From the IMG/VR virus record IMGVR_UViG_3300017962_000116, positions 1 through 24,234 of that record: a stretch of 24,234 nt of DNA. The stretch is one strand, 5' to 3'. Each line of letters starts with the position of its first letter. Positions within the stretch are counted from its first letter, which is position 1. Positions 6,001 through 24,234 of this stretch are shown here, piece by piece. The position numbers and the translations under genes are program-made. The notes below the pieces were generated by a model, which searched no databases, was not told the origin of the DNA, and saw nothing but the letters and a program-made list of their open reading frames with translations. Origin of the DNA: a virus.

Positions 6001-9000
6001 TAGATTATATAGATCCTATACAAGGCAAAATTGCTGGCCCAGCAGAACAAGACATTAGTTATAAATTGTATTATGATCCTGCAACTTACACAGTTGGACC
6101 TGACACTGTTAATGTCAATGAAACAAACAGTTGGGGACCAGAACAAGTTGGTAAAATTTGGTGGAACTTGAATAATGCAAAATTTTATAATCCATATCAA
6201 TCTGATATAATTTATAGCACAGCTAATTGGAGTAAACTTTTTGAAGGTAACAGCATAGACATCTACGAATGGGTGCAATCATCTGTGCTTCCATCGGAAT
6301 GGGATACGTTATCAGGAACAGATAGAGGTGTAGCAAGAGGTATTACAGGCACAAGCGTTTACGGTGATACTACATATGTTTCTAAACGTAAATTTGATTC
6401 AGTATCTCAAACATTTAGCAACATATATTACTTTTGGGTAAAAGATAAAAGAACAGTTCCTGATGTAGAGTTTAGAAGCATAAGTGCAAGAGATATTGCA
6501 AATCTAATTGCAGATCCGCAAGGACAAGGATATCGATATGCTGCTTTAGTATCACCTGATAGCTTTGTTTTATATAACTGTGAATCATTAATAGAAGAAA
6601 ATAATGTTGCAGTTAGTTTCCAATATTATACTATTGATGATCAAACAATCAATACACACAATCAATACCAAATTATAACAGACGGCTTGGCCACAAGCAC
6701 TCCGAATAGAGATATAGAACGCAAATGGATTGACAGTTTAGTAGGATATGATGAGTATGACCGAGAAGTACCTGCAACTAATCTTTCACCTAAAGAAAAA
6801 TATGGTATTTTAAATAGTCCTAGACAGAGTTGGTTTGTAAATAGAGCTGAAGCGTTAAAACAGTTAATTGAAAGGGTAAATGGTGTACTCAAAGAAAATT
6901 TAATTGTAGATGACAAAAATCTAACCAAATTAAATTTGAGAGATCCTGAGCCTAGCACTGTATCTAATCTTTATGACACAACAGTAGATTCTGTAGCTGA
7001 TCTACAATTTATTGGTGTAGCTAAAGCAGAGCAAGCAAAATTAAATTTAGTTGTCGAAAATGGAAAAGTTGTTAGAGTTTTAATTACAGATCCAGGTAGG
7101 GGATACAGAACAGTTCCTACATATACAATAGACGGCGCCGGCTCTGGATTAGAATTAGCCATTACAATAGATAATTTTGGATCTATATCTGGAGTCAAAG
7201 TTACAAACCAAGGAAAAGACTACACAGCAAATGATTCAATCGAAGTTAGAAAATTTACTGCACTAGTTTTAAACGACGAAACTATCCAAGGCAAATGGGC
7301 ATTGTATGAAAGAGACACTAATCTTAGATTGTGGCAAAGAATTTCTAGTCAGTCTTATGATGTGTCATTATATTGGGATTACATAGATTGGTATGCAACT
7401 GGATATAGTGAATTTACTAAAATAGACTATGTTATTAGTGATGCTTACCAATTACAGAGTTTAGATGATGTACTCGGTGATGTAGTAAAAATTGAAAACA
7501 TAGGATCAGGCGGCTGGCTATTACTAAGAAAAATTGACGTACAAAACGATGTTGATTATACTGTTAATTATGAAACTATTGGTAGACAAAATGGTACTGT
7601 TAGTTTTAAGAATACTTTGTATGATACACAACGAAATCAGGTAGGTTTCGACGTTGTAAGTTATGATATAAGATCTTTTGATAGTTTACCTACGGTTGAA
7701 ACACGTACAATTTTAGATAGTTTAAAAACAGATATCTTTACAGAAGAACTTGCAATAGAATATAATAAGTTATTCTTTGCAAGTTTACGTTATGTTTTTT
7801 CAGAACAAAATTATGTGGACTGGGCATTTAAAACTAGCTTTATAAAAGCCAGACATAATGTTGGTGAACTTAGAGTTGATAATACATTTAACAATGACAA
7901 TCTTTCTAGTTACGAAGATTACATTAATGAAGTCAAACCATTTAAAACTAAATTGCGTGAGTATGTTAGTGCGTATGAAAAAGTTGAAAACTCTAACAGC
8001 CGGATTACAGATTTTGATTTACAACCAAGTTATAACGAAGACTTTAAAAAGATTCTACCACAGAGTATAAAAGTAGTTAACAATAGCCTTATTGGTGTTA
8101 ATGATAAACTTGATAGTTATCCGTTTAAGAATTGGGCAGATAATGTTGGCTTTAATGTAGTTGCTGTTGAAATTGCCGATGGCGGTATGGGATATCAAAC
8201 TCCACCAGTTTTAACTTTCAGCGGCGGAGGCGGCAGTGGAGCAAAAGCAATAGCAAAATTAGGTACTGGCGGTAAAATTACATCAGTAGAAATTACATCT
8301 AAAGGTACAGGATATATAAGTGCTCCAACTCTTTCTATAAACGGTTCTATATCTGATGGAGGAAAACAAGCAAAACTAAGTGTGATACTTGGCGAAGGAC
8401 TTCCTAAAACTATTAAAACTGAAGTTAAATTTGACAGAACAGGCAGCAGATATTTTATTACTAATTTAACAGAAACTGAATCATTTGTAGGAACAGGTTC
8501 TAGATATATATTTGATCTAGTATGGCCTATGCAAGTGAAAAACACTGATGTAAGTGTAACTGTTAACAATATTCAGCTATTAAGAAGTGAATACACATTT
8601 GAAAATGTAAAAGATTTAACCAAAGGATACACTAGATATTTTGGTAGAATAATTTTAACAAATCCTGCTGTAATAGGAACAAGCATTGTTGTAGAGTATA
8701 AGAAAGATATTACACTATTACATGCTGCTGATAGAATTAATTTAGCATACAATCCTGAAACAGGACAATTTGCAAAAGATCTAGGCCAATTAATGGACGG
8801 TGTTGACTATGGCGGCGTTGAAGTTAAAAGTTTTGAATTTTTAAAACCATTAGGATGGGAATCTAATCCTTGGGGTACTGGAACTTATGATACATACGAC
8901 GAAACTTATCTTGATGAAGAGTTTGTTAGGAAATTTGTATCATTAACCTTTAACAATAATGTTAATGCTCTACGTTATGCAAATATTATTCAAGACAACA

Positions 9001-11921
9001 CAAATGCTACAGGAGTTGTTTCAGCTGATGTAACTAATTCTACTACTATAGTTGTGGAAAGTTCATTTGATATCAACTTTACAACAGAGCATGAGGTTAG
9101 ATTTGATGATAGTACATTAATATCTAATTCAAACGAAAATGCAAAGCCTACAACTATACAAAATTATGTAAAATTAAAAAATCCTTTAGATTCGGCAGTT
9201 GTGTATAATGTTTACAAAAATGGTGTAAGAATAGACGATCCAAATTTTGGAACATTAGATCCTGTGACAAATCCTAATGCAGTGATGCAAAGTTTAACAG
9301 GAGACGGAACAACAACTATAGTAGCTTTACCTGATATAGCATATACTAGCACTGACAAGATTATTGTAAGAAAATCAACAAGTGATGGAAGTTTCCTACC
9401 ACCAAGTGACACATATGATACTTTGATTGGCGGAGGCAGTCTTGATTATTCAAATGCAAGAGGTATAGACTCTGCAGAAATTAATATAGACGGCGACGGA
9501 TTTGTTACCCCTACAAGTTCAAAAGGACCAGAAGAACTTGTTCCTGGACAAGTGCTTGATACAGTAGATATACAAGTTTATGAAAGACCAACAACTGGTG
9601 CAAGTAATATTATATCTATGAACTATAGAGGTGACGGCGTTACTAAAGTATATAATATAGGAACCAGTCCTGTAACAGACACAGCCATATTTGTAAAAGT
9701 TGATTATATTATACAAAAACTAGATACTGATTACACTATTGATTATGATGCAAAGACTTTGACATTCACTACAGCACCTAGTAATAATAGTTTAATAAAT
9801 TTTGTTACATTAGAATATAGCGGATCAAATGTTCTTGACATTGATGAGTTTACTGGCGATGGAAGCACAGTTAATTTCTTAACAAACATTACATTTACAA
9901 AAGACAACAGTAGTTTAATTACAGTTGACGGAAAAGAAGTAGAACACGTTCTAGTTGAAGCTGACAACTCGTATGCTATCCCAGGAAATTTTGTAATTAA
10001 ATTTTCATCAGCACCAGCAGATGGATCTGTAATTAGATATGCTATATTCGAAGGACAAATACAAAATTACAGTGCAGTAACCATAGACGAATTTGTAAGT
10101 GACGGAAGTACAACTTCTTATCAATTAACACAAACACCATTTAATCAAGCACCAACTGAATGGTATACAATAGTTAAAATAAACAATACTATTTTAAATG
10201 CAGGTTACAATGAAGTATTTGATGTTACCGATACAAGAGAATATACATTAAAATTATGGCAAGTTCCGTTGGGGTCACTTTTAACTAATCAAATTAAAGT
10301 GTATCTAAACAACAGAGAATTAGAACCGATAGGAGAATTTACTTTTAGTAGTGCTGATGCATTTGATCCTACTTTACCTCTAAATGCCCAAGCGGGTAGT
10401 ACTATCACACTAAATGAGAATGTAGGATCTACTGGAGACAAATTGCGTGTGTTTGTTATGGGTTGGGACGACAGCACACAAAGCGGCGGCGACTATCGAT
10501 TTGGATATTTTGACGAACAAGATGAGTTTGTTTCTACACCAGGCGAATTGTTTATTAGCAAGAATTATGAACTAGATGATATTATCACAGTTTACCAATT
10601 TAGCAATCATGATAGTCAAGATATCGATAGACAAAGTTATGATATTGTAGAAAGAACCGAATTAGTCAAAGGTATTAATTCGTCAGTTGAGACTTTTATT
10701 GCAGATGGTAGCACAGATAGTTTTGATCTAGAAAATGTATTACAAGCAGGCCAATATTATGCAGTTTATAAAAATAACATTCGTATAGATGATCCAAACT
10801 ACGGCACTTCTTTACAAAGAAATTCAAATGCTCAAATGCAAACTATACTAGGCGACAATATTACACAGCAACTTAAATTAGATGATCTAGGAGTTATTGC
10901 TGGAGTAGGTGATGTGTTTAGGATTGAACAGTTAAAAGCCCAAACTATTCCTGATTCAGGAACAGCAGATTGGTATCAACTGCGTAGATTGAGAAACGGA
11001 GTTATAGATCTAAGATATCCAGCCGTAGATGATCAATATGTTTGGGTGGTGAAAAACGGACAGTTGTTAAGTCCAAGTGTAGACTATTATGTTACACCCA
11101 ACAAGATGACTGTAAAACTAATAGAAACACTTGCTGAAAATGATACCATTGAAACAATACATTTTAGCAATGACATCTTAAAAAATAAATTTGGATGGCG
11201 TCAGTTTAAAGATATTTCTAATAGAAACATATACAAACGTCTAGATGGTAGTAAGAATTTTGAATTAGCAGAACCTTTAAATTGGTATGATAAAAGTATC
11301 CATGTTGTAGATGCTAACGAATTACCAGCACCGCCAGCAGGTGCAAACATACCAGCTGTAATTTTTGTTGAAGGTGAACGTATAGAATATTTCATAAAAG
11401 ATGGAAATTATTTAAAACAGTTGCGTAGAGGAACTTTTGGTACAGGAATTAAAAGCACATACGCAGAAGGTACTGAAATTTATGACCAAAGTGGTCAGCA
11501 TACAATGCCTTACAAAGACGAAACACTAAGTACATTGTTTACAGCTGACGGAACAACTAAAACATATGAGTTAGACTTTACACCGACAACTGTAAATGAA
11601 TTTGAAGTATTTGTTGCAGGTAGAAGACTTAGAAAAACTTCTATAAAATCTTATCAATTAGATACAGATCTAAGGACAACATATGCTGAAAATGGTGAAA
11701 TTATAGCACAAGATAGTCCAGAAGGAGATATAACTTTACCAGCAGAATTTGAAATTCAAAACGGTAACGAGCTTGTTTTACATGATTTACCATTAGAAAA
11801 TCAAAAAGTAATAGTTATAAGAAAGAAAGGAAGAATTTGGAGTGAGTTAGGTACAAGATTAAGCGATTCTGATACAGATATTGCAAGATTCTTACGTGCT
11901 ACAACAGTTGACTTACCCTGA
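1..11921 (+). CDS. Giant modular virion structural protein (5' truncated)
   Basis: The frame is open from the first base, so the N-terminus lies outside; at least 3973 codons remain. Residue numbers count from the TTG at base 9, which is not a credible start. Four short carbohydrate-binding-module-like segments (aromatic, G-x-[VI]-V, then Y or W) lie near residues 239, 499, 1004 and 1655. FG-GAP/beta-propeller-like repeats (for example MVVGAPNNADGKVLVYSR) lie at about 910-990, 1738-1868 and 1924-1960. A domain of about 135 residues is duplicated (1073-1208 and 1301-1434). Glycine-rich beta repeats with a GxGYxxxP signature occur near 2352-2415 and 2718-2794. An array of DGST-type repeats occupies 2828-3970. 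A segment with FVEGERIEYFIKDGN, near residue 3785, resembles large structural proteins of marine T4-like phages as I remember them. The protein probably sits in the baseplate or tail-fibre apparatus and contacts the cell surface; its position before the fibre genes fits. I cannot equate it with a T4 gene. Confidence 0.85.
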   Translation, partial: GTLLSPSESGYASNFSTSGARLPFKYGDGSPVESSWRSSSDYPFAIITSWLLNQPNKVMSTGFDRARQIRNSAGQIVYSATGKQVTLKDIVFPNSINDTTQIYTSGLINYVANYLTFNTASQYTTYKENLFNIENQIGAKIAGYTEKEKFKLILDSRTPLNEGNVFIPDENYSVFLNTSSPIDLLSYSGVLIEKTSSGYIVSGYDTVTPSFKYFKPIPQTNDPYVTVGGISESFVDFDGGRTYAEGSVVRVSDKFYRAKETHTSGAEIDAEKFVLLPQLPVVGGKTAQFRRIYETKESVLEYGVILSTLQDVVDFLQGYGAWLESKGFIFEEFVSGSNTVSDWRTTSKQFMFWTTQNWGQGSVITLSPAAEKIKFKTDYAIVDNVFDTFYGYSVLKADGKKLKDEYLKIYKESDNTFSMYTVNTADGIYAVRLPLVQKEHVVLLDNTTVFGDVIYDLEPGYRQERIKVLGYRTDNWNGSLNIPGFIFDNARPKLWEPWTDYTIGDLVKYKEFYYSADKKIAGKEFFNANDWNRLSEEPTSRLLTNFDYKINQFADFYDLDSDNFDTEQQRLAQHLIGYQKRQYLENIINDDVSQYKFYQGFIQDKGTKNALTKLFDALASADKDSLEFYEEWAIKDGQYGASEGFEEVEYLLDEKKFRLTPQPILLTNNVTGKETDLIYRIQSYETYLKPKNYNHRPLPAKYIDQGYTKNSGYVNPEDVSFVLSTYDDILTLNLSDVTNGAYVWVGNVEKSWNVYKHINSELKINKVISGTEEFSVELDTTAFNVAVGDILGVFDIITTVVDPADSTQQVSQTTAPVEGFFKVKKVSLNKITFETSQSIADVDDCTGILTKFVSVRADTLSNANKIAEYYTRLNDKIWVDDDTTGKWLVLENKNEYNELQALSNTEEGTDHNYGISISADERNSVMVVGAPNNADGKVLVYSRASNANNWVLRQVIEADSTIADAEQNFGKSVDVSADGKYLIVGAPNASNVKTNFKGDYVDTQNYQAGEIVRRQDSLWQADFDILGAEANIQFDSFQSVPQIIDTLNLEASDAEDIPFLLAGNYPFTNQTTDHFLIRAPKTMYDGTGLGDEIVLHWNSLANANQDQDTLVETEPFANTIPYINKNYLESAHTVFDKIDAVLYVDTSTNIPSVGSTISTIGATATVAYTYNEGASVTIYVKDVNGTFPDANSLTIDNGDFVGEYERVGPIEETSTSTVLGGFWLVKTSTPYQVGEVTSDIAGGLIFKDVIPDSTATGRVYFNSLDYSTNTISSEDTLNNFLQVLSFNGAPGPGGTTGPVESQLYVMRAPKDLTDNINPGDQIYTYVNNLAKHSDGALENPSSIGLNFATTNAEKTVYDVWDGYINYKNQFFLDDEPFEPVVGQTVRDVTTGAEAEVAYYIRNLDDVTIFVKNVTGTWSKGDQFGQAAEIEMLAYPGGPDPDAFGRPGIYGVDRKVGVSQRISLGYSASGIGKLLVFQAAVPISAPTGDYRYTSVLGATPVFDSIGNFLYLQSNSDFEIWFYNVGTVLGIPRLANIPAGDNLDWTEVFKIPTSVNGTSEGYVNEGIYYIYERNRANTYVSLGSFVGPQRQNNNYLGTKVEIRQTGNLYRGFISAPASETVDNPGRIYFIKNGFENGETYNWDYAKDKNFKGEFSESQRYFTGNKVYLANRIYTAITNVNAGPFDTLQWTSTDDLIDYVGFVPNDTGLVVITDSSYVPGDVFDPDNILPGDSTVLDQGSLYDFATAFDVSASGDVLVVSAKYGNDKPNLVVIYRVLNGQYLRDQTITAPNNFIGFGDSVSISSDGRLLAISAPFDDSAKRDQGKVFVYKQQSGKFVQTQILNSPFDESAEQFGNVIQFDGDTLAVNAQNTDTTTSTTFDNKQTTFDDQFTKFNYENENGGTVYVYERINDNLIYAQNLDFESQFSDVNYFGRNLYLKNNHIYVGLPTVKTNSTYQGTIVDYRKLDNSTLFNKLREPKDTIDLSKIKRAILYNTETNQLLTYLDYIDPIQGKIAGPAEQDISYKLYYDPATYTVGPDTVNVNETNSWGPEQVGKIWWNLNNAKFYNPYQSDIIYSTANWSKLFEGNSIDIYEWVQSSVLPSEWDTLSGTDRGVARGITGTSVYGDTTYVSKRKFDSVSQTFSNIYYFWVKDKRTVPDVEFRSISARDIANLIADPQGQGYRYAALVSPDSFVLYNCESLIEENNVAVSFQYYTIDDQTINTHNQYQIITDGLATSTPNRDIERKWIDSLVGYDEYDREVPATNLSPKEKYGILNSPRQSWFVNRAEALKQLIERVNGVLKENLIVDDKNLTKLNLRDPEPSTVSNLYDTTVDSVADLQFIGVAKAEQAKLNLVVENGKVVRVLITDPGRGYRTVPTYTIDGAGSGLELAITIDNFGSISGVKVTNQGKDYTANDSIEVRKFTALVLNDETIQGKWALYERDTNLRLWQRISSQSYDVSLYWDYIDWYATGYSEFTKIDYVISDAYQLQSLDDVLGDVVKIENIGSGGWLLLRKIDVQNDVDYTVNYETIGRQNGTVSFKNTLYDTQRNQVGFDVVSYDIRSFDSLPTVETRTILDSLKTDIFTEELAIEYNKLFFASLRYVFSEQNYVDWAFKTSFIKARHNVGELRVDNTFNNDNLSSYEDYINEVKPFKTKLREYVSAYEKVENSNSRITDFDLQPSYNEDFKKILPQSIKVVNNSLIGVNDKLDSYPFKNWADNVGFNVVAVEIADGGMGYQTPPVLTFSGGGGSGAKAIAKLGTGGKITSVEITSKGTGYISAPTLSINGSISDGGKQAKLSVILGEGLPKTIKTEVKFDRTGSRYFITNLTETESFVGTGSRYIFDLVWPMQVKNTDVSVTVNNIQLLRSEYTFENVKDLTKGYTRYFGRIILTNPAVIGTSIVVEYKKDITLLHAADRINLAYNPETGQFAKDLGQLMDGVDYGGVEVKSFEFLKPLGWESNPWGTGTYDTYDETYLDEEFVRKFVSLTFNNNVNALRYANIIQDNTNATGVVSADVTNSTTIVVESSFDINFTTEHEVRFDDSTLISNSNENAKPTTIQNYVKLKNPLDSAVVYNVYKNGVRIDDPNFGTLDPVTNPNAVMQSLTGDGTTTIVALPDIAYTSTDKIIVRKSTSDGSFLPPSDTYDTLIGGGSLDYSNARGIDSAEINIDGDGFVTPTSSKGPEELVPGQVLDTVDIQVYERPTTGASNIISMNYRGDGVTKVYNIGTSPVTDTAIFVKVDYIIQKLDTDYTIDYDAKTLTFTTAPSNNSLINFVTLEYSGSNVLDIDEFTGDGSTVNFLTNITFTKDNSSLITVDGKEVEHVLVEADNSYAIPGNFVIKFSSAPADGSVIRYAIFEGQIQNYSAVTIDEFVSDGSTTSYQLTQTPFNQAPTEWYTIVKINNTILNAGYNEVFDVTDTREYTLKLWQVPLGSLLTNQIKVYLNNRELEPIGEFTFSSADAFDPTLPLNAQAGSTITLNENVGSTGDKLRVFVMGWDDSTQSGGDYRFGYFDEQDEFVSTPGELFISKNYELDDIITVYQFSNHDSQDIDRQSYDIVERTELVKGINSSVETFIADGSTDSFDLENVLQAGQYYAVYKNNIRIDDPNYGTSLQRNSNAQMQTILGDNITQQLKLDDLGVIAGVGDVFRIEQLKAQTIPDSGTADWYQLRRLRNGVIDLRYPAVDDQYVWVVKNGQLLSPSVDYYVTPNKMTVKLIETLAENDTIETIHFSNDILKNKFGWRQFKDISNRNIYKRLDGSKNFELAEPLNWYDKSIHVVDANELPAPPAGANIPAVIFVEGERIEYFIKDGNYLKQLRRGTFGTGIKSTYAEGTEIYDQSGQHTMPYKDETLSTLFTADGTTKTYELDFTPTTVNEFEVFVAGRRLRKTSIKSYQLDTDLRTTYAENGEIIAQDSPEGDITLPAEFEIQNGNELVLHDLPLENQKVIVIRKKGRIWSELGTRLSDSDTDIARFLRATTVDLP
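3225..4310 (+). repeat. Internal duplication in the giant protein (two units of about 135 residues)
   Basis: Two segments of the giant protein align by eye, the first at about 3225-3632 and the second at about 3909-4310. Unit 1 opens FLIRAPKTMYDGTGLGDEI and unit 2 opens LYVMRAPKDLTDNINPGDQI. Both continue with a VxD-containing strand, then PSVGSTISTIGATATVAY against PVVGQTVRDVTTGAEAEVAY, then VTIYVKDVNGTF against VTIFVKNVTGTW. The order of motifs is conserved while the sequence has diverged, so the duplication is old. Unit 1 ends in a section that includes a short proline/glycine run (APGPGGTTGP). The fold is not identified. Confidence 0.75.
8490..11590 (+). repeat. C-terminal DGST-type beta-repeat array of the giant protein
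   Basis: Eight copies of a pattern [GAS]-[DT]-G-[ST]-x-x-x-[FY]-x-L start near residues 2828, 3098, 3208, 3283, 3364, 3565, 3615 (degenerate, LGDNIT) and 3846. Each is usually followed by a strand with V-x-[VI]-[DN]-[GN]. Two copies are preceded or followed by a nearly identical segment, VYKNGVRIDDPNFGT (about residue 3068) and VYKNNIRIDDPNYGT (about 3586), which shows duplication of a larger block. The pattern resembles small beta-sandwich repeats of phage tail proteins; this assignment is by motif only. Confidence 0.7.
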
Positions 11922-12563: not shown

Positions 12564-14576
12564 ATGGCATACGAAATAGCGTATACAGATCAGGCAAACA
12601 AAGGTACTATCACAATTGAAGATAGAACTATTAACCAGGAAACTTCGCTTAGTATTCCTGGTAGAAATGAAACTGCATATGGTCCTGCTATAGCAACTAA
12701 TTTTTTACATTTATTAGAAAATTTTGCCGCACCTACAGAACCGGCTAGACCACTCGAAGGACAGTTATGGTATGATTCTACACCAGGCATAGAACTTTTA
12801 AAAGTATATGATGGAACTAACTGGATACCAAGCGGTGGTTTAAAGAAAGCAAATACTGAACCTGAAGCATCACAAAGTCAAATTGGTGATTTATGGGCTG
12901 ATACTGACAACCAACAATTATATTTGTTTACTGGATCCGGTTGGATACTAGTAGGACCAGAATTTAGTGACGGATTATCTACCGGAGCATCACCATTAAC
13001 AGTAGTAGGTACTGATGACAATACATATAACATTTTACAAATTGAAGTAGATGCTCAACCTGTTGCCTTAATAAGTACGAGAACATTTACTCCTAAGGTT
13101 GTTATTCCTGGATTTAGTACAATCCAACCCGGTGTAAATTTATCTACAAGTAATATCACTGGTGACGGTGTTTCTAAATTTTATGGAACTGCTGAAAAGG
13201 CTGAAGGTCTTATTGTTTCAGGAAACACAGTTGCAGCAGGAAACTTTTTAAGAGGCGACACAACAAGTACAACAGCATTTCCTATTAATGTACAAAACAA
13301 TACAGGTATCAACTATGGCATAAACGCAGAAATGAATATCGGTGTTGAAGGTAATATAGGAATTATAAGACATAATATTGCAGGATCAAGTGTTGATATT
13401 CAAGTTAAAAATGATGGATTATTAAAAACTGCATTACGTGTAGATAGTAATTTAAAAATAGGAATAAACAACGTTGCACCAGAACAAGAATTAGATGTCA
13501 CTGGAAACATACAATCTAGTGGTTTTGTCAAAGTTAATGATGTTACACAAAGTGATACTTTTGACACAGGTAGTATTATTACACTTGGAGGGCTTGGCGT
13601 TGCAAAAAATATTAATATTGGCGAAAATTTAAATGTACTTGGAAATATTACAACAACACAAGTTTTGCCAGACCAAAACAACACACGGAATATAGGTAGT
13701 AGCACATCTAAATATGCAAATATGTTTGCAACTACATTTGTTGGAAACTTAACAGGAAATGTTAGCGGTACAGTTTCTGGTAGAGCAGGTAGTGCAGATA
13801 AGTTAACTTCTGCAAGCACTTTGAGAATTACAGGTGATGTATCTGCAAATGATGTTGTATTTGACGGACAATCGGGTGGAAGTTTAAAATTATTCCAAAC
13901 TGTAATTAGCAACCAAATTATTGCAGGTAAACCATCAGTAGGCCAATCACAAGCAGACGACGAATTTTTAATAAACAGAACTAGCGGGGCAACTGGATTA
14001 AAGAAAATAAGCAGAGTAAATTTGTTATCTGCTGTACCTAGAACACCGATAGGCTTACTTGCACCGTATGCAGGACTAGCCGCACCTAGCGGTTGGCTAA
14101 TATGTGATGGTAGTGAAGTAGACATTGCTGCTTACAGTGCATTATATGATATTATTGGTACTATATACAAAGCAAGTCCTACACCAGGAAAGTTTGCCCT
14201 TCCAGATTTAAGAGGTAGGGTGCCTATGGGTGCAGATAATATGGGTGGCACAAGTGCAGATACTGTAACTGCTGCTTCTGCAGACGTTGTAGGTGCAAAA
14301 GACGGTGCTGAACAAGTAAACATCAACGTTAAAAATTTACCTGAGCACAATCACGATTTACGTGGACCAAGTGGTGACCAATATTATGCTATAAGAGATG
14401 TTAGCGGAACGCCTACTGATAACGAAGCAATTATCTATGATGCACCAACAGGCACAGGTGCTGGACAAGCATTTCCAAATAGTGGTGGTATACTTACAGA
14501 TGGCGATTTAGGTGATCCTATTAATGTAATGAATCCTTACATTACAATTAATTACATAATATATACAGGAACGTAG
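12564..14576 (+). CDS. Tail fibre protein with C-terminal phage Collar domain (670 aa)
   Basis: First of three paralogous fibre genes. The N-terminal ~150 residues carry two W-x-D modules, GQLWYD (residue 66) with VYDGTNW, and GDLWAD (residue 108) with FTGSGW and VGP. This module is shared with the next two genes and is probably the docking part. A GTAEKAEGL element and beta-rich repeats follow. From residue 497 comes a Collar domain: APSGWLICDGSEVDIAAYS, then FALPDLRGRVPMG. The end has LPEHNHDL, giving an H595-x-H597 pair, and MNPYITINYIIY. In T4 gp12 an HxH pair per chain binds a metal ion inside the trimer, so the same is inferred here. GAGG at 12551-12554 precedes the ATG. The product is probably a trimeric receptor-binding fibre. 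Confidence 0.88.
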   Translation: MAYEIAYTDQANKGTITIEDRTINQETSLSIPGRNETAYGPAIATNFLHLLENFAAPTEPARPLEGQLWYDSTPGIELLKVYDGTNWIPSGGLKKANTEPEASQSQIGDLWADTDNQQLYLFTGSGWILVGPEFSDGLSTGASPLTVVGTDDNTYNILQIEVDAQPVALISTRTFTPKVVIPGFSTIQPGVNLSTSNITGDGVSKFYGTAEKAEGLIVSGNTVAAGNFLRGDTTSTTAFPINVQNNTGINYGINAEMNIGVEGNIGIIRHNIAGSSVDIQVKNDGLLKTALRVDSNLKIGINNVAPEQELDVTGNIQSSGFVKVNDVTQSDTFDTGSIITLGGLGVAKNINIGENLNVLGNITTTQVLPDQNNTRNIGSSTSKYANMFATTFVGNLTGNVSGTVSGRAGSADKLTSASTLRITGDVSANDVVFDGQSGGSLKLFQTVISNQIIAGKPSVGQSQADDEFLINRTSGATGLKKISRVNLLSAVPRTPIGLLAPYAGLAAPSGWLICDGSEVDIAAYSALYDIIGTIYKASPTPGKFALPDLRGRVPMGADNMGGTSADTVTAASADVVGAKDGAEQVNINVKNLPEHNHDLRGPSGDQYYAIRDVSGTPTDNEAIIYDAPTGTGAGQAFPNSGGILTDGDLGDPINVMNPYITINYIIYTGT

Positions 14577-18133: not shown

Positions 18134-19096
18134 ATGGCAGTAAGTGTAGGAGATACAATAACAGCGGCACAGTACAACGGACTGCAAAGTCGTGTTGCTA
18201 CCATTATGGGAGTTGGTTCAGGTAACGAAGGTTATGGACAAACTTTATCCAGTGCCCAAGTTGCTGTGTCAAACACTGTTACAGCAACACAAATGGATAA
18301 TCTTCGCACTGATTTAAACAAAGCAAACAATCACCAACTTGGAACAAATGCATCAATTGGTAATATAGCTGCAGGTGATATTATTGGTGCAGACGCAAGC
18401 GGCTTAAACATTTCAAGTTTAACAGATATTGACAAAGGTTTCAACGATTACGATGCAGCAGTTTCTTCTATAGAAGCAAACAGGTATGCTATAGATGCTG
18501 GAAACAGCTCAGTAGAAGCAGCCATAACAAGCACACGTACAACAAACTGGAATGGTATAATTGATCACGTGTTTACTGTAACATTTGCAAGCGCAAATGA
18601 TAGAAGATACTTTTTTAATAGTGGCGGAGAAATACGTTTTAGTGCAAACTTATCTGGTCAGTCTGGTGCAAAATCAGACGATTGGGCAACATTGTTATCA
18701 AACATGGGAACAATAAAATTTAACCATACAGAAACAACAGCAACAGGCACAGGAACAGGTACTACTATAGGAAACTATGATTTAACATCTGTTTATCAAA
18801 CAATTTTTACAAAAACAGGTAGCGGTAACTATGCCGAAAACGACTACAACATTGCCGCAAAAGAAACCAGCACAACAGTTATTGACTTTAGAATTCAATT
18901 TAGAGACGATGACACAGGTGACCAAGTTTTACCTGGAAGCGAAAATCCTGGCGATGTTGACGGTGTAATTGTTCCAGGACCAGCAGTTGACGAAGATGTA
19001 AACGGCAACCTAACTAGTACAATCCAACAATTACGTGCTACTGGATCAAATGTTTCTGTAGCTTCTCCGTCCTACGCAAATACATCAACTCTTTAA
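18134..19096 (+). CDS. Probable virion/tail structural protein (320 aa)
   Basis: A 320-residue protein with no membrane segment or signal peptide. The N-terminal ~100 residues repeat a motif: VGDTITAAQYNGLQSRV and, about 40 residues later, VSNTVTATQMDNLRTDL, each with a helix after a short strand. The middle is beta-rich, with HVFTVTFASANDRRYFF and GGEIRFSANLS. A threonine/glycine-rich stretch (TATGTGTGTTIG) precedes further strands. The end is acidic and then Ser/Thr-rich. I recall proteins with the RYFFNSGGEIRF pattern near the fibre genes of marine T4-like phages, usually labelled structural. The consensus late promoter directly upstream supports a virion role. Fibre accessory protein or neck/whisker component are both possible. 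Confidence 0.72.
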   Translation: MAVSVGDTITAAQYNGLQSRVATIMGVGSGNEGYGQTLSSAQVAVSNTVTATQMDNLRTDLNKANNHQLGTNASIGNIAAGDIIGADASGLNISSLTDIDKGFNDYDAAVSSIEANRYAIDAGNSSVEAAITSTRTTNWNGIIDHVFTVTFASANDRRYFFNSGGEIRFSANLSGQSGAKSDDWATLLSNMGTIKFNHTETTATGTGTGTTIGNYDLTSVYQTIFTKTGSGNYAENDYNIAAKETSTTVIDFRIQFRDDDTGDQVLPGSENPGDVDGVIVPGPAVDEDVNGNLTSTIQQLRATGSNVSVASPSYANTSTL

Positions 19097-19160: not shown

Positions 19161-19511
19161 ATGGATGATAAACTTAAAAACGCTTTAGAATTTGCCAATT
19201 ATTCGCACACATTGCACAATCAAAAACAACTTATCAAGCAGAAGTTTATTGACGATTGTGTATTTTATCATAATGCTGGTAAATTTACAGTTAATAGAGA
19301 GTTGCTAGTTTATTGTGGATATTGTCAACAATGGAACAGGAATATTCCTGTAATTTTACTTGATGATAATAATATTCCTATAGAAATAAAAGATATTGAT
19401 AAATTTACAATAGATATACTAAAACTTTACAAAAAATCTTCAGAAGAATATCACAATGCTTATCAAAAATTAGTTGGTAATAAAACTGTAAAAGGACTAA
19501 TTGATGAGTAA
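19161..19511 (+). CDS. Conserved small phage protein of unknown function (116 aa)
   Basis: First gene of the sigma-70-like operon. Residues 1-45 look helical and basic (FANYSHTLHNQKQLIKQKF). A middle part follows with VILLDDNNIPIEIKDIDKF, and then a C-terminal helix with KKSSEEYHNAYQKLVGNK. Two cysteines sit close together (YCGYCQQW), which could be a redox or metal pair, but there is no second pair to complete a zinc site. There is no signal or membrane segment. I recall similar short proteins in T4-like cyanophages beside fibre genes, without assigned function. Its last 8 bases overlap the next gene's start region, so the two are translated together. A chaperone or assembly role for the fibres is possible from position only. 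Confidence 0.7.
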   Translation: MDDKLKNALEFANYSHTLHNQKQLIKQKFIDDCVFYHNAGKFTVNRELLVYCGYCQQWNRNIPVILLDDNNIPIEIKDIDKFTIDILKLYKKSSEEYHNAYQKLVGNKTVKGLIDE

Positions 19512-20307
19512 AGGATGTCTAGTTTTTGCATTCAACAATGAAAAGATAGACTACATAAAACAAGCAACATATCTTGCTAAAAATGTTAGTAAGTATTTGA
19601 ATTTGCCGACTACGCTAGTAACTGATGTAGAAGTTGAATCAAAAGAGTTTGATCAAATTTTAGTTATAGAAGATTCATTTTACAAAAGTAAAAAAACATA
19701 TCATGATGGCAATCTTGCAAATGAAAGATTAACTTTTAAAAACGCCGCAAGAATAAAATCTTATGAACTTTCACCTTATGATAATACATTTGTATTTGAC
19801 ACAGATGTTTTGCTTGCAAATGATAATTTTTTAAAATGTTTTGATCAAGAGAAGTCAGTTTGTATGTATGATAAATCTTTTGATGTGTGTTCATATAGAA
19901 AATCTCAAGAATTTACATGGATTAGTGATATAGGTTGCAAGTTTTACTGGGCAACTTGTCTATACTTTAAAAAAGATGATCAGTCTAAAATGTTTTTTGA
20001 AGTTGTAAATCATGTATATGAAAATTATTCATATTATAAGCGTTTGTATCAAATAAATTCTAACCTATATAGAAATGATTTTGCTTTCAGTATTGCAGCA
20101 CATATTATGAACGACTATCAAAAAGGTGATTTTGTAGGTAGTATGCCGGACACTATGTACTACAGTTTAGATACAGACAAAATATTAAGCATAAACAATG
20201 ACAATTTTTTGTTTTTAAGTTATATAAACAATAAACCCTTGGCCATAAAAACAAAAAAACAAACAGTTCATGCTATGAACAAGTATGATTTGGAAAAATT
20301 GCTATGA
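19504..20307 (+). CDS. GT-A-fold glycosyltransferase-like protein with DTD motif (267 aa)
   Basis: The start is taken as ATG 19504 rather than TTG 19501, since it follows an AAGG and overlaps the previous stop by only 8 bases. It opens with CLVFAFNNEKIDYIKQA, a beta strand and helix typical of nucleotide-sugar binding folds, then TLVTDVE. The key motif is SPYDNTFVFDTDVLLAND with D99-T-D101, the D-x-D that binds metal and nucleotide sugar in GT-A enzymes such as family 8. It should therefore transfer a sugar from a nucleotide donor in the cytoplasm. The acceptor is unknown: fibre protein, DNA or a host glycan are all open. It is paralogous to the next gene. The call rests on the motif and on the Rossmann-like opening. 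Confidence 0.72.
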   Translation: MSKGCLVFAFNNEKIDYIKQATYLAKNVSKYLNLPTTLVTDVEVESKEFDQILVIEDSFYKSKKTYHDGNLANERLTFKNAARIKSYELSPYDNTFVFDTDVLLANDNFLKCFDQEKSVCMYDKSFDVCSYRKSQEFTWISDIGCKFYWATCLYFKKDDQSKMFFEVVNHVYENYSYYKRLYQINSNLYRNDFAFSIAAHIMNDYQKGDFVGSMPDTMYYSLDTDKILSINNDNFLFLSYINNKPLAIKTKKQTVHAMNKYDLEKLL

Positions 20308-21062
20308 CACAAGGATATTTAATATATGCTCAAGGTGTAAAACATAAAAAATATGCGTTACATTGTGCTAAAAGTTTAAAAAAACTTGGAGATACTAGAC
20401 CTATAAGTTTAGTAACCGACGAAAAGAAACCTAGTGATTTAAAAGTATTTGATTATATTATAGAAATTGAAAAAAACAATGATAAGTTTCATGTACAAAA
20501 TAGATCTAAATTGTTTGAGTATTCTCCATATGACGAAACTACAGTAATAGAAAGTGATTGCATAATTACTCAAGATTTAAACAACTGGTGGACAAGGAAT
20601 AAAACTAAAGAATTATCCTTTATAAGTCAAGCCTATACATATAGACAAGAAAAATTAGACACAACTGTGGATAGAAAAACTTTTTTAGAAAATAATTTAC
20701 CAAATCTTTATGTAGCATTGCACTATTTTAAAAAAACTAAATTTACAAAAAGTTTTTTTGATTTAGTAAGTCTAATTAACACCGATGAAGATTTACGCAA
20801 GAAGTTATTACCTAATAGAAGTCCTAAAATTCCTAGCATGGATGTAGCAATATGTTTAGCGACCAAATTGCTTGATTGCGAAGACGCTGTAAGTTATACA
20901 GGATTAGACCCAATGTTTATTCATATGAAACCTTATGCTCAAGGATGGCAAGAACCATTTGAACAATGGAGTAAACGCATACATTATTTTCCTGGTGATG
21001 AAATTTTTGTAGGTCCGTTTAAACAAAAAGGTGTATTTCATTATATAGAGGATGTAATATGA
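20304..21062 (+). CDS. GT-A-like glycosyltransferase paralogue with ESD in place of DxD (252 aa)
   Basis: Translation is coupled to the gene before it by an ATGA overlap at 20304-20307. The layout matches that gene: GYLIYAQGVKHKKYALHCAKS, ISLVTDEKK, then SPYDETTVIESDCIITQDL. At the metal-binding position it has E83-S84-D85 where the neighbour has D-T-D. The first acidic residue is thus a glutamate, which may alter metal use or activity, or mark a non-catalytic partner. Further on, SMDVAICLATKLLDC resembles the second conserved helix of the paralogue (FAFSIAAHIMNDY). The C-terminus has KRIHYFPGDEIFVGPFKQKG. Predicted cytoplasmic. It could act as a second transferase adding the next sugar or as a heterodimer subunit. 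Confidence 0.68.
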   Translation: MTQGYLIYAQGVKHKKYALHCAKSLKKLGDTRPISLVTDEKKPSDLKVFDYIIEIEKNNDKFHVQNRSKLFEYSPYDETTVIESDCIITQDLNNWWTRNKTKELSFISQAYTYRQEKLDTTVDRKTFLENNLPNLYVALHYFKKTKFTKSFFDLVSLINTDEDLRKKLLPNRSPKIPSMDVAICLATKLLDCEDAVSYTGLDPMFIHMKPYAQGWQEPFEQWSKRIHYFPGDEIFVGPFKQKGVFHYIEDVI

Positions 21063-21559
21063 TTTTTTATGTTTACTTTGACAATGAAACTAGAGAAATT
21101 GTTAGTATTACAAATGAAAAAATAGAATCTAATCATTCGTATGTAGAAAAACAACGCAATGACGTAGAAGATTTTATTCAAGGTAGAAAAAATTTTGTAG
21201 ATTTTAAGTTTGATAGTAGATTTAATTTTGTTGTAAAAAACAAACAAACAAAAGATGTTGTAACTAATACTTTTGTAGAAATTAAAACTAAAATAAATCC
21301 TATGCTAAATGTTACACACAATAATTGTTGGCAATTTAGTTTTGAAAAACCAAATCAAAGCATAAACGGAGACTTATTTTTTGCGGTTACAGAAAAAAAT
21401 AATCCTAACAAATTAATTAGGACAATACATTTTAATAGCCAACTAGCAAACAGTGTGTATGAAGTAGATTTTAAATACAACAGCGAGAAAAGTATAAAGA
21501 ATATTAGTATATGGGCAATAAATCCGCCTTATGAATCAGCAGGACTACAAACAAAATGA
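21059..21559 (+). CDS. Unknown protein in the glycosyltransferase operon (166 aa)
   Basis: Starts at an ATGA overlap with the previous gene and ends in another with the next, so it is firmly part of the operon. It opens MIFYVYFDNETREIVSITNE, a beta hairpin. A charged section follows with EDFIQGRKNFVDFKFDSRF, and then a beta-rich C-terminal half with CWQFSFEKP, LFFAVTEKN and ISIWAINPP. There are no catalytic motifs, signal peptide or membrane segments. The C-terminal half looks like a small beta-sandwich, which could bind a glycan or protein partner. I do not recognise the family; similar short proteins exist beside glycosyltransferase genes in marine T4-like phages as far as I remember. Confidence 0.65.
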   Translation: MIFYVYFDNETREIVSITNEKIESNHSYVEKQRNDVEDFIQGRKNFVDFKFDSRFNFVVKNKQTKDVVTNTFVEIKTKINPMLNVTHNNCWQFSFEKPNQSINGDLFFAVTEKNNPNKLIRTIHFNSQLANSVYEVDFKYNSEKSIKNISIWAINPPYESAGLQTK

Positions 21560-24234
21560 GTCAAGAATTTAAAGTTTATGATTATGATATAATTTATCTC
21601 AGCTATGACGAACCAAATGCTGAAGAAAATTACTACGATCTAAAACAAAAGATTCCATGGGCAAAACGCATACATGGAGTAGAAGGATCTGATGCAGCAC
21701 ACAAAGCCTGCGCAGAATTATCTGAAACTGAACGTTTTATTACTATCGACGGAGATAATAAAGTATCTCATAATTTTATTTCTGAAGAACTACATTTTAG
21801 TGACGACAAAGATCTAAGCAAATGTGTCATAAGTTTTAGTGCATATAACATGATAAATGGTCTTGTATACGGTAACGGCGGAATAAAATGCTGGCCAACA
21901 GAGCTTGTCAAAATTATGCGTACACACGAAAACGCAGATCCTGACAATACTGCTGCAGGAATTGATTTTTGTTGGGATTTAGAATACTTGCAAATTAACA
22001 AACTTCACAGTCATGTTTACAATAACGCAACACCGTGGCAGGCTTGGAGAGCCGGATTCCGTGAAGGTGTAAAAATGAGTCTGCTCGAAGGCAAAAAACC
22101 AGACAAGGACAAATTTAATACACAAGTTGCAAGAAAAAATCTTGATAGGTTAAAAATTTGGACAACAGTGGGCGAGGATGTAAAAAATGGTCTTTGGGCA
22201 ATCTATGGAGCTCGCGAAGGTGTGTATAAAACCATGTGTACAGACTGGGATTATGTAAATGTTCGTGACTTTGAGTATCTAAATAATTTATGGAAAGAAG
22301 AATACAGTAAAATACGTGAAGAGGATTTAAGATACGAAATAATGGGACTAGGGCACACACTGAGAGAAGAATTAGATCTTAATATTCCTGTAGATCATTA
22401 CAATACTGAACAAAGTAAGTTTTTTAAAAGTGTTTATACACCGCCAGAAAGAGCTCCTCAGACGTTTTTATCTGAAAAAGAAAAATCAGAATATGATATT
22501 GTAATGATTAGTTACAACGAACCTAATGCAGAAGAAAATTATCACAAACTAAAAACACGTTTCCCCCGTGCAAAGCGTATTCACGGTGTAAAAGGAATTC
22601 CAAAAGCACATCAGGAAGCTGCAAAACTTTGTAAAACAGATTTAATTTGGATAGTTGACGGTGATGCTGATATAAAAGATGATTTTAATTTTGATTACAA
22701 GTCGCCTAACCATGAAATGAACTATGTTAAGGTTTGGAGAAGCGAAAATCCAGTAAATGGGTTGAAATATGGTTACGGCGGAGTAAAACTTTTTCCTAGA
22801 CAGGCAACAATTGAAATGGATATTACCAAACCCGATATGACCACTAGTATCAGCAGGCATTTTAGACCTATGCCTAGTGTAAGTAATGTAACTTCCTTCA
22901 ATACAGATGCATTTAGTGCATGGAAAAGTGGATTTAGAGAATGTGCAAAGCTAGCCAGTAGCATTATAGATAGACAAAAGCAAGACGAAACAGACAAACG
23001 TCTTACAGCCTGGTGTCAAGATGCTGACCAATCTATACCTTTTGCTAATGAAGCAGTTCAAGGTGCAAGAGAAGGAAGAAAGTATGGTGAAAAATTCAAA
23101 AATAATCTAGAGAAATTAAATCTTATAAATGATTTTGACTGGTTGCAACAGCAATTCAAAAAAAGCTATAAAACTGAGGATAAACCTTCACAGACAACCA
23201 ATGATAACGCAGACGAATTTGTAAAAGAAATTTTAGATAGATTTGAAATATTATATCCTAAAGAAAAAGTTAGTAATTTTAGGAGATTTTATTCTTCACA
23301 GGAACTTACAAGTTTATTCAAACTCGTAGATAACGATGATTTAAGAAAAGCAATAGTAGAAAAAAATCTACACAGTATTTTTAGATTAGTAGACGTTGAC
23401 GATGATTTAAGAAAAGCAATAGTAGAAAAAAACCTACATAGTATTTTTAGAATAGTTGAAACCGATGATGATTTAAGAAAAGCAATAGTAGAAAAAAATC
23501 TACACAGTATTTTTAGATTAGTAAATGCTGACGATGATTTAAGAAAAGCAATAGTAGAAGAAAACTTGCATAGCATTTTTAGATTATTAGATAATGATGA
23601 TCTAAGGAAAGCAGTAATTGATAAAAACATGTACAGTCTTGCGAGATTACTACCAGAACTTCAAGACGAAATGAAAGTTGCGTTGAACAACGATCAATAT
23701 GCGCTATGGAGAGTGTTAGAAAATTATACTAGTAGTTCTTTAATTAAACCTATAAAAACGTTAGTAAATGAAAATAAAAACTTTGACAAAGATTGTATTA
23801 GTAGAGGACAACTCAAAAGTAAAATATGGTTAATTGATACACTATTACAACTTGATGTGAAATTAGGCAATGTATTTTTATGTGCTGGTTGGTATGCTAC
23901 TATAGTTCCTCTTTTAGTTGAAAAAGGATTACAGTTTAATTCCATAAGAAGTTTTGACATTGATCCAGATGTTTGGAAAATTTCGGAAATATTTAACAAA
24001 GATCTAGTTGCAAATGGTTGGAAATTTAAAGCTCAAACTTTAGATATACATGATTTAAAATATGATGAATTTAAATTCACAACTATTAAAAGCAATGGTG
24101 AAACAGAACAATTAAAAGAAAGTGCTAATACAATTATTAATACAAGTTGTGAACACATAGAAAACTTTAGTGAATGGTATAATAAAATACCAACAGGTAA
24201 ATTGGTCATTTTACAAAGTAATAATTATTTTGAA
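21556..24234 (+). CDS. Tandem glycosyltransferase-like / helical repeat / methyltransferase-like protein (3' truncated)
   Basis: Read directly from the ATGA overlap at 21556, the frame stays open for 893 codons to the window edge. Two tandem copies of one domain are clear. YDIIYLSYDEPNAEENY (residue 10) matches YDIVMISYNEPNAEENY (313); D65-G-D67 matches D368-G-D370; GLVYGNGGIK (102) matches GLKYGYGGVK (402); GAREG at 218 matches GAREG at 503. DGD is the likely metal/nucleotide-sugar site of a glycosyltransferase-like fold. Residues 594-701 hold 21-22-residue helical repeats. From about 756 comes a class I SAM-methyltransferase-like domain: NVFLCAGWYATIVPLL (772, motif I), FDIDPDV with D801, and NTSCEHI (862, motif IV). 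It ends unfinished after LVILQSNN. It probably adds sugars and methyl groups to one target, which is unknown. Confidence 0.75.
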   Translation, partial: MSQEFKVYDYDIIYLSYDEPNAEENYYDLKQKIPWAKRIHGVEGSDAAHKACAELSETERFITIDGDNKVSHNFISEELHFSDDKDLSKCVISFSAYNMINGLVYGNGGIKCWPTELVKIMRTHENADPDNTAAGIDFCWDLEYLQINKLHSHVYNNATPWQAWRAGFREGVKMSLLEGKKPDKDKFNTQVARKNLDRLKIWTTVGEDVKNGLWAIYGAREGVYKTMCTDWDYVNVRDFEYLNNLWKEEYSKIREEDLRYEIMGLGHTLREELDLNIPVDHYNTEQSKFFKSVYTPPERAPQTFLSEKEKSEYDIVMISYNEPNAEENYHKLKTRFPRAKRIHGVKGIPKAHQEAAKLCKTDLIWIVDGDADIKDDFNFDYKSPNHEMNYVKVWRSENPVNGLKYGYGGVKLFPRQATIEMDITKPDMTTSISRHFRPMPSVSNVTSFNTDAFSAWKSGFRECAKLASSIIDRQKQDETDKRLTAWCQDADQSIPFANEAVQGAREGRKYGEKFKNNLEKLNLINDFDWLQQQFKKSYKTEDKPSQTTNDNADEFVKEILDRFEILYPKEKVSNFRRFYSSQELTSLFKLVDNDDLRKAIVEKNLHSIFRLVDVDDDLRKAIVEKNLHSIFRIVETDDDLRKAIVEKNLHSIFRLVNADDDLRKAIVEENLHSIFRLLDNDDLRKAVIDKNMYSLARLLPELQDEMKVALNNDQYALWRVLENYTSSSLIKPIKTLVNENKNFDKDCISRGQLKSKIWLIDTLLQLDVKLGNVFLCAGWYATIVPLLVEKGLQFNSIRSFDIDPDVWKISEIFNKDLVANGWKFKAQTLDIHDLKYDEFKFTTIKSNGETEQLKESANTIINTSCEHIENFSEWYNKIPTGKLVILQSNNYFE
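23335..23658 (+). repeat. Tandem 63-66-bp coding repeat (five units)
   Basis: Units begin at 23335, 23401, 23467, 23533 and 23596. The first three are exactly 66 bases and the last two 63. The protein unit is DDLRKAIVEKNLHSIFRL plus a variable VDxD-type linker. Units 1 and 3 differ only near their ends, in the linker codons. Unit 4 has several changes, and unit 5 is degenerate (DDLRKAVIDKNMYSLARL). Degenerate flanks (SSQELTSLFKLVDN before, and LQDEMKVALNNDQYALWRVL after) suggest a longer, older solenoid from which the middle was recently amplified. The spacing D-x-x-x-R-x-A-[IV] recalls leucine-rich-variant repeats, but this is tentative. Confidence 0.85.

What the first reader, a model, noticed from the sequence alone, without database searches (positions are those of the whole stretch)
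21556..24234. Fusion of two glycosyltransferase-like domains, a helical repeat array and a methyltransferase-like domain
One reading frame holds two tandem DGD domains (offset about 300 residues, supported by four motif pairs), then a repeat solenoid, then a SAM-binding-type domain with GWYAT, FDIDPDV and NTSCEHI motifs. A protein that could glycosylate twice and methylate the same target, with a solenoid as spacer or substrate grip, would be an unusual modification enzyme. It sits directly behind tail-fibre genes, so fibre decoration or capping of host glycans are both possible.
Basis: partly seen in the sequence, partly recalled or inferred. Interest (0 to 1): 0.72.

Follow-up and report, generated by a model that had tools for sequence, protein, structure and literature searches.

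The report
Phage sugar-adding and methylating fusion enzyme
A gene near the tail genes of an uncultured tailed phage encodes one long protein that looks like two sugar-transferring enzymes, a stretch of short repeats and a methyl-transferring enzyme joined together, probably to build and cap a sugar chain.

Summary
The frame at 21556 is open and cut only by the window end; L002 (5 mismatches in 7,679 nt) gives the complete 936-aa protein. The two DGD domains are homologous (30% over 251 aa, E 1e-30) and modelled as GT-A folds; the C-terminal domain is modelled as a class I methyltransferase fold (Z 16.1). Between them lies a 22-residue repeat array, helical only in a low-confidence model. Among 226 viral loci the three modules occur as one, two or three genes. 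DxD is kept in 142 of 142 D1 and 207 of 207 D2 domains. The linker varies from 93 to 479 aa while the catalytic segments hardly vary. No Pfam, NCBIfam or PADLOC model covers it. The nearest parallel in layout is Klebsiella O7 ORF6: methyltransferase, coiled coil, two glycosyltransferases. A polymerase, ruler and terminator in one chain is not excluded.

The parts
21556..24234 (+). Whole reading frame, 893 of 936 residues; 3' end cut by the window
21580..22443 (+). D1, first GT-A-like domain (about residues 9-296); DGD at residues 65-67 (21748-21756)
   Evidence: model of D1-D2 pLDDT 86.2; Foldseek match to K4CP over both domains; homology to D2; DxD kept in 142 of 142 readable viral D1
22492..23175 (+). 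D2, second GT-A-like domain (about residues 313-540); DGD at residues 368-370 (22657-22665)
   Evidence: VIA Z 12.0 to 9h6j, 139 aa, rmsd 2.7, model 308-448; DxD kept in 207 of 207 viral D2
23170..23799 (+). Linker between D2 and the methyltransferase-like domain, holding the 22-residue repeat array (residues 539-748)
   Evidence: period 22 aa; 66-nt units at 23333-23591; helices at low pLDDT
23800..24234 (+). MT, class I methyltransferase-like domain from SRGQ (residue 749 on; continues to 936 in L002); CAGWYA 776-781, FDIDPD 800-805, NTSCEH 862-867
   Evidence: VIA Z 16.1 to 3ofk NodS, 168 aa, rmsd 2.6; signature near-invariant in viral and genome-contig relatives
21059..21559 (+). 166-aa protein of unknown function, overlaps the start of the fusion gene
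   Evidence: no Pfam match; homologue in 15 of 61 loci
20304..21062 (+). Small gene of the cassette, possibly a sugar transferase (weak; phrog_1903, unknown function)
   Evidence: homologue in 61 of 61 loci; the gene at the same place in L040 has a sub-threshold Mannosyl_trans3 hit
19501..20307 (+). Small gene of the cassette, no credible family match
   Evidence: homologue in 59 of 61 loci
19161..19511 (+). 116-aa protein of the cassette, unknown
   Evidence: homologue in 59 of 61 loci
18134..19096 (+). Tail-fibre-like protein upstream of the cassette (name inferred from position and make-up, not from a call)
   Evidence: no Pfam match; homologue in 61 of 61 loci

Best explanation
The protein is a multi-step glycan enzyme. 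D1 and D2 are two different, probably active GT-A glycosyltransferases that add two sugars, or two linkages, in sequence to one acceptor. The MT domain then methylates the same product, most likely a sugar at the growing end. The repeat array is a spacer of adjustable length between the transfer sites and the methylation site. The acceptor is most likely an envelope-type glycan, made to change the host surface during infection. Shown here by computation: the domain folds as predictions, the conserved DxD motifs, the lasting association of the three modules, the variable array. Inferred: donor sugars, acceptor, order of steps, the purpose of the array.
For: Folds: D1-D2 model pLDDT 86.2; the best PDB Foldseek match is the two-domain chondroitin polymerase K4CP, E 2.5e-6 over 572 columns; VIA Z 12.0 to B4GALNT1 for the D2 part. 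MT model at block-mean pLDDT 87-98 over the domain, VIA Z 16.1 to NodS. Pfam, at E up to 0.1: 18 of 40 A1 members match Glycos_transf_2 (best 5.3e-4) and 8 of 40 Glyco_tranf_2_3 (best 1.8e-5). Active-site letters: DxD in 142 of 142 D1 and 207 of 207 D2; RE of the FRE motif in 143 of 143 and 207 of 207 (near-copies counted). Two functions, not one: D1 and D2 are two sides of one branch, SH-aLRT 100, in a quick 147-row tree. One pathway: the three modules occur fused, half fused or separate among 226 viral loci, and an MT gene starts within 50 bp of the stop of a gene ending in D2 in 88 of 145 cases. Glycan setting: in the bacterial contigs L113 and L096 a D1 gene lies directly upstream of MT; nearby are a family-2 glycosyltransferase (E 2e-16, L096), an amine-oxidase-type flavoprotein and a PP-loop protein (L113) and radical-SAM genes; in Mesorhizobium L099 an MT relative lies beside GT28 and GT1 genes and an ABC transporter. 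Published view of similar phage islands: host-surface change (PMC7029224, passages).
Against: The window protein itself has no Pfam match to a glycosyltransferase or methyltransferase at E up to 1, and the L002 copy no NCBIfam match. The GT-A match list also holds nucleotidyltransferases with the same core (IspD, Z about 10-11), and 13 of 40 A1 members match DUF6492, a family of unknown function. The MT domain lacks the classic DxGxGxG motif; it has mostly [CLYH][AG]GW[YFN] there. In 28 of 145 cases no MT gene follows D2 in the fetched stretch. None of the ten window genes scanned with Pfam (the giant gene at 3-11921 was not scanned) looks like a sugar-nucleotide, flippase or export gene. A tail-fibre-like homologue is present in 61 of 61 loci, which fits a virion acceptor at least as well. 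No activity has been measured.
Confidence: 0.5

Rival explanations
1. Virion decoration. The enzyme glycosylates and methylates a tail-fibre or baseplate protein encoded nearby, changing adsorption or stability. Precedent: the flagellin cassette of Clostridioides difficile, where a glycosyltransferase with a methyltransferase domain lies downstream of the filament gene.
For: A homologue of the tail-fibre-like gene in 61 of 61 loci with at least 4.9 kb before a D1 gene; collar-domain protein at 12564-14576. C. difficile GT2 adds two rhamnoses to the flagellin glycan and is held to methylate them (PMC5207246, passages).
Against: The bacterial D1-MT pairs (L113, L096) lie in stretches of about 10 kb without a homologue of that gene. 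The C-terminus of the tail-like protein is not specially conserved.
Confidence: 0.3
2. Tailoring of a peptide or small molecule together with the radical-SAM enzymes, as in mycofactocin, a peptide-derived cofactor with a sugar chain.
For: A radical-SAM homologue in 107 of 107 viral loci with 3.5 kb beyond MT, and in several genome contigs with D1 or MT. Mycofactocin carries a cellulose-like sugar chain (PMC7491314, search listing only).
Against: Radical-SAM cassettes are also reported in glycosyltransferase-bearing islands of pelagimyophages (PMC7029224, passages). No search for a precursor peptide gene was made, so this is weakly tested.
Confidence: 0.1
3. Hypermodification of phage DNA with sugars against restriction.
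For: Phage glycosyltransferases are known to act on DNA (stated in PMC12619734, passages).
Against: The gene travels with tail-like genes; none of the ten window genes scanned with Pfam is a base-modifying enzyme; bacterial relatives examined lie near glycan genes.
Confidence: 0.04
4. A partly dead enzyme: one or both GT-A domains are scaffolds or sugar-binding units, as the DxD-less units in front of D2 in relatives suggest.
For: 65 of 134 complete D2-only genes carry 1-6 N-terminal units of about 105 aa; a crude regex sample of 176 strings from them, not all true units, shows no D-x-D.
Against: D1 and D2 themselves keep DxD in 142 of 142 and 207 of 207 copies.
Confidence: 0.06

Closest known systems
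Klebsiella pneumoniae O7 ORF6 (PMC11231755, passages)
   Same: One polypeptide with two GT2 modules, a spacer and a methyltransferase; polymerisation and termination in one chain.
   Different: Reversed order; it also has a kinase and a carbohydrate-binding domain; the spacer is a coiled coil; bacterial O-antigen locus with ABC transporter. No sequence relation was tested.
WbdA/WbdD of Escherichia coli O9a (PMC3482155, abstract and outline; PMC11231755, passages)
   Same: Dual glycosyltransferase plus a methylating terminator whose spacer length sets chain length; resembles the split state D1-D2 | repeat-MT.
   Different: The methyl goes on a phosphate added by a kinase; no kinase match was seen here.
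Chondroitin polymerase K4CP (2z87)
   Same: Best PDB Foldseek match, two GT-A domains in tandem.
   Different: No methyltransferase (recalled); 10% identity; whole-chain superposition poor (TM 0.18).
C. difficile type B flagellin GT2 (PMC5207246, passages)
   Same: Glycosyltransferase and methyltransferase domains in one protein behind a filament gene; methylation may stop extension.
   Different: Flagellin acceptor; no repeat array is described in the passages read.
Host recognition cluster of pelagimyophages (PMC7029224, passages)
   Same: Island of tail fibres, glycosyltransferases and radical-SAM cassettes in T4-like marine phages.
   Different: The word methyltransferase does not occur in that paper's main text; the fusion is not in the passages read; the window's giant structural protein resembles jumbo-phage proteins.
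Uncultured phage proteins in BFVD
   Same: A0A6J5L5L5 and A0A6J5LK21, uncharacterised, match the D1-D2 model at E about 1e-24; A0A6J5M7M7, named Methyltransferase FkbM, matches at 2.5e-6, so other glycosyltransferase-methyltransferase fusions probably exist in phages.
   Different: None is characterised; their methyltransferase parts were not compared with MT here.

Membership tests
GT-A fold glycosyltransferases | GT-A fold | tested here: met
   Prediction only: pLDDT 86.2, VIA Z 12.0, 139 aa, rmsd 2.7 for the D2 part. D1 rests on homology to D2 and the two-domain Foldseek match.
GT-A fold glycosyltransferases | DxD metal/donor motif | tested here: met
   142 of 142 readable D1, 207 of 207 D2
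GT-A fold glycosyltransferases | sugar transfer | not testable with these tools
   no assay
Pfam Glycos_transf_2 (PF00535) | window protein matches the model | tested here: not met
   No hit at E up to 1; 18 of 40 relatives hit at E up to 0.1, best 5.3e-4. Not filed as a member.
Class I SAM methyltransferases | Rossmann MTase fold | tested here: met
   Prediction only: VIA Z 16.1, 168 aa, rmsd 2.6
Class I SAM methyltransferases | glycine-rich SAM motif DxGxGxG | tested here: not met
   mostly [CLYH][AG]GW[YFN] at that place; acidic D801/D803 follow. The fold is there; SAM use is inferred, so it is called methyltransferase-like.
Class I SAM methyltransferases | SAM binding and methyl transfer | not testable with these tools
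   no assay
WbdD / O7 ORF6 polymerase-ruler-terminator | glycosyltransferase and methyltransferase modules joined by a spacer of variable length | tested here: met
   linker 93-479 aa in 32 complete fusions
WbdD / O7 ORF6 polymerase-ruler-terminator | coiled-coil spacer | tested here: inconclusive
   helices separated by short turns, block-mean pLDDT 39-48
WbdD / O7 ORF6 polymerase-ruler-terminator | chain length follows spacer length | not testable with these tools
   no assay. Not filed as a member.
Pelagimyophage host recognition cluster | next to VrlC, with tail fibres, glycosyltransferases, radical SAM | tested here: inconclusive
   tail-like and radical-SAM genes present; one 1000-aa slice of the giant structural protein gave no clear match to Mosig VrlC, best E 0.005 over 24 aa

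The most novel reading that the evidence does not exclude
Uncultured T4-like and jumbo phages carry a complete glycan machine, in some of them in one chain: two glycosyltransferases make the polymer, an array of 22-residue units acts as a molecular ruler, and a methyltransferase stops the chain. Phages tune glycan length by gaining or losing repeat units, and the same modules are shuffled between one, two and three genes.
Probability: 0.2. Interest if true: 0.82.

Novelty: new variant of a known kind. Interest (0 to 1): 0.62.

Why it matters
Phage islands beside tail fibres often hold sugar-modifying genes whose targets are unknown. Here a large environmental family offers a single gene with both the transfer and the capping steps, and a natural series of array lengths that would let the ruler idea be tested directly. 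It would also help to say whether such islands change the host surface or the virion.

Tried and rejected
Closeness to Campylobacter phage CP220 glycosyltransferases was tried because of matching gene sizes and rejected: no similarity. A radical-SAM gene of L002 does match CP220, F379 and Mosig weakly, 23-24%. A conserved C-terminal acceptor peptide on the tail-like protein was looked for and not found. Mosig VrlC against one 1000-aa slice of the window's giant protein: no clear match. tblastn against deposited phages gave no match for the whole protein (E limit 1e-5), MT, D1, an L292-type protein or a bacterial D1 (E limit 0.01); one split-type MT query hit Pelagibacter phage Mosig at 26%. 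Sequence search of solved structures found nothing credible. NCBIfam and PADLOC: no match. Weak Pfam hits (ToxA_barrel E 0.0035, DUF3283) are below cut-off and were taken as chance. The VIA list for the D1-D2 model is filled by D2 (model 308-470), so D1 was barely tested by structure alone. The repeat part was never folded alone. The D2 tree needs at least 4 changes for fusion to D1 and 2 for fusion to MT; well-supported branches force only 1 in the group tables, so repeated fusion is not proven.

The 226 loci are those left after dropping 12 that I judged by eye to lie on a contig already counted. D1 or MT may lie outside the fetched stretch. Neighbour counts count a homologue anywhere in the locus. 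The repeat counts and the DxD-less sample use fuzzy regular expressions; some of the 176 strings are not true units. One of 143 D1 rows has a gap at DxD. The genome-contig loci L082, L083 and L090 look like phage contigs in bacterial bins, by their gene content as I read it.
Full report
What is there. The frame at 21556-24234 is open, starts with an ATG that overlaps the stop of the gene before it, and is cut only by the end of the window. A viral contig with 5 mismatches in 7,679 nt, L002, gives the full protein of 936 residues. The two DGD segments are homologous at 30% identity over 251 columns, residues 9-250 with 312-538, E 1e-30. The array between the second DGD domain and the third domain has a period of 22 residues and shows as 66-nt units in the DNA.

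What the domains are. The D1-D2 alignment of 40 sequences gave an AlphaFold2 model of mean pLDDT 86.2. Its best Foldseek match in the PDB is the bidomain chondroitin polymerase K4CP (E 2.5e-6). VIA-align puts the D2 part on GT-A enzymes, Z 12.0 with 139 residues at rmsd 2.7 for B4GALNT1. The list also holds nucleotidyltransferases with the same core fold (Z about 10-11), so fold alone does not prove sugar transfer. In Pfam at E up to 0.1, 18 of 40 alignment members match Glycos_transf_2 (best 5.3e-4), 13 of 40 DUF6492 and 8 of 40 Glyco_tranf_2_3 (best 1.8e-5), while the window protein itself matches none of these. The C-terminal domain was modelled at block-mean pLDDT 87-98 and matches class I methyltransferases, Z 16.1 with 168 residues at rmsd 2.6 for NodS; all 50 rows listed have Z 14 or more. 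A Mesorhizobium relative matches Methyltransf_25 at E 2.3e-4, below the curated cut-off; the six other relatives scanned with it had no match at 0.05. The repeat part was modelled at block-mean pLDDT 39-48 and cannot be called a solenoid.

Conservation. D65 and D67 are kept in 142 of 142 readable viral D1 domains; D368 and D370 in 207 of 207 D2 domains. The GGxK and FRE motifs are nearly or fully invariant in both. In MT, N862 and G934 are kept in 159 of 159 viral and 49 of 49 genome-contig sequences, and H867 in 157 of 159 and 49 of 49; other signature positions vary more. In a quick tree of 147 domains D1 and D2 form two sides of one branch with support 100, stand-alone and genome-contig copies included; five rows have long branches. 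They are thus most likely two old, separately kept functions.

Modules on the move. In 226 viral loci (after dropping 12 repeats of a contig) the states include: all three fused, 32 complete plus 6 cut; D1-D2 fused with a separate MT gene, 18 plus 2; three separate genes, 24 plus 4; D2 and MT seen without D1 in reach, 59 plus 6; separate D1 and D2 without MT in reach, 33 plus 4; the other 38 are smaller classes and cut pieces. Where a gene ends with D2 and at least 900 bp follow, an MT gene starts within 50 bp of its stop in 88 of 145 cases, in 29 further cases MT follows later, and in 28 none is seen. In split genomes the repeat array belongs to the MT gene: 77 of 128 separate MT genes have at least one unit, up to 8. 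In 32 complete fusions the D1-D2 segment measures 529-553 residues and the MT segment 186-197, but the linker 93-479; of 192 pairs with 60-99% identity in the joined catalytic segments 167 differ in linker length by 20 or more. L009 and L011, 93% identical, have 6 and 8 units; some fusions have none. Four near-identical pairs with arrays from different metagenomes (L013/L014, L023/L025, L026/L027, L028/L057) agree exactly in linker length, which argues against assembly error.

Surroundings. All 61 first-scan loci with at least 4.9 kb before a D1 gene hold a homologue of the tail-fibre-like gene at 18134 and of the gene at 20304; 59 of 61 hold the genes at 19161 and 19501; only 15 of 61 the 166-aa gene. 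All 107 viral loci with 3.5 kb beyond MT hold a homologue of the radical-SAM genes that follow in L002. The window's giant structural protein is most like proteins of jumbo phages such as Vibrio phage 2.275.O and RaK2 relatives, about 25-32% identity over a third of the stretch or less in the rows listed. D2 relatives lie on contigs up to 357 kb, the full fusion on contigs up to 182 kb, and 7 of 10 contigs tested carry the T4-type prohead protease. This points to an uncultured T4-like or jumbo phage; an aquatic, probably marine source is inferred from the names of relatives and is not told by any search.

Relatives outside phages. The MT scan of genome contigs found 52 loci, by their titles 32 rhizobial and 7 of Bdellovibrio-like groups. 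In L113 and L096 a D1 gene stands directly before MT. Pfam finds a PP-loop protein and an amine-oxidase-type flavoprotein near it in L113, a family-2 glycosyltransferase and radical-SAM proteins in L096; L113 also holds a radical-SAM homologue. In Mesorhizobium L099 MT stands beside GT28, GT1 and an ABC transporter. This is the main reason to prefer a glycan acceptor over a tail-protein acceptor. It is indirect and rests on three contigs.

How it works, and what it is like. The parallel with Klebsiella O7 ORF6 is close in layout though reversed: methyltransferase-kinase, coiled-coil ruler, two GT2 modules, tested there by in vitro reactions (PMC11231755, passages read). The split state resembles WbdA plus WbdD. 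C. difficile flagellin GT2 shows a glycosyltransferase with a methyltransferase domain behind a filament gene (PMC5207246, passages read). None of these was tested for homology here, so the protein is said to work like them, not to be one of them.

Novelty. No Pfam, NCBIfam or PADLOC model covers the protein, and its PHROGs hits are weak (best E 0.0015). Literature searches returned no paper that I could identify as describing this fusion from the listings; preprints and most subscription papers are not held. BFVD holds two uncharacterised relatives from uncultured phages and other phage proteins named as glycosyltransferase or methyltransferase. Fusions of glycosyltransferases and methyltransferases are known, so it is a new variant of a known kind.

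Noticed in passing
L199:6033-8687, L179:6111-8684, L292:3483-5708: Relatives of D2 carry 1-6 N-terminal units of about 105 aa that look like shrunken D2 domains without DxD, in 65 of 134 complete D2-only genes. Their use is unexplained.
   Followed up: partly
L002:8021-12679: Radical-SAM genes and an SGNH-like gene follow the fusion gene; radical-SAM homologues are in 107 of 107 loci with enough flank, the SGNH-like gene in 7 of 107. The SGNH label is recalled from its sequence start; Pfam gave no match.
   Followed up: partly
L099:4833-5507 and other rhizobial contigs: A chromosomal, unnamed methyltransferase-like family with the same signature; in Mesorhizobium L099 it sits beside GT28 and GT1 genes.
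   Followed up: partly
window 3-11921: A 3,972-aa open structural protein cut at its start, with about 25-32% identity to jumbo-phage proteins in the rows listed.
   Followed up: partly
L082, L083, L090: Metagenome-assembled bacterial bins hold contigs that look like phage carrying this cassette.
   Followed up: no
L077:1168-5335: One contig has two D1 genes around a D2 gene, a possible step in module duplication.
   Followed up: no
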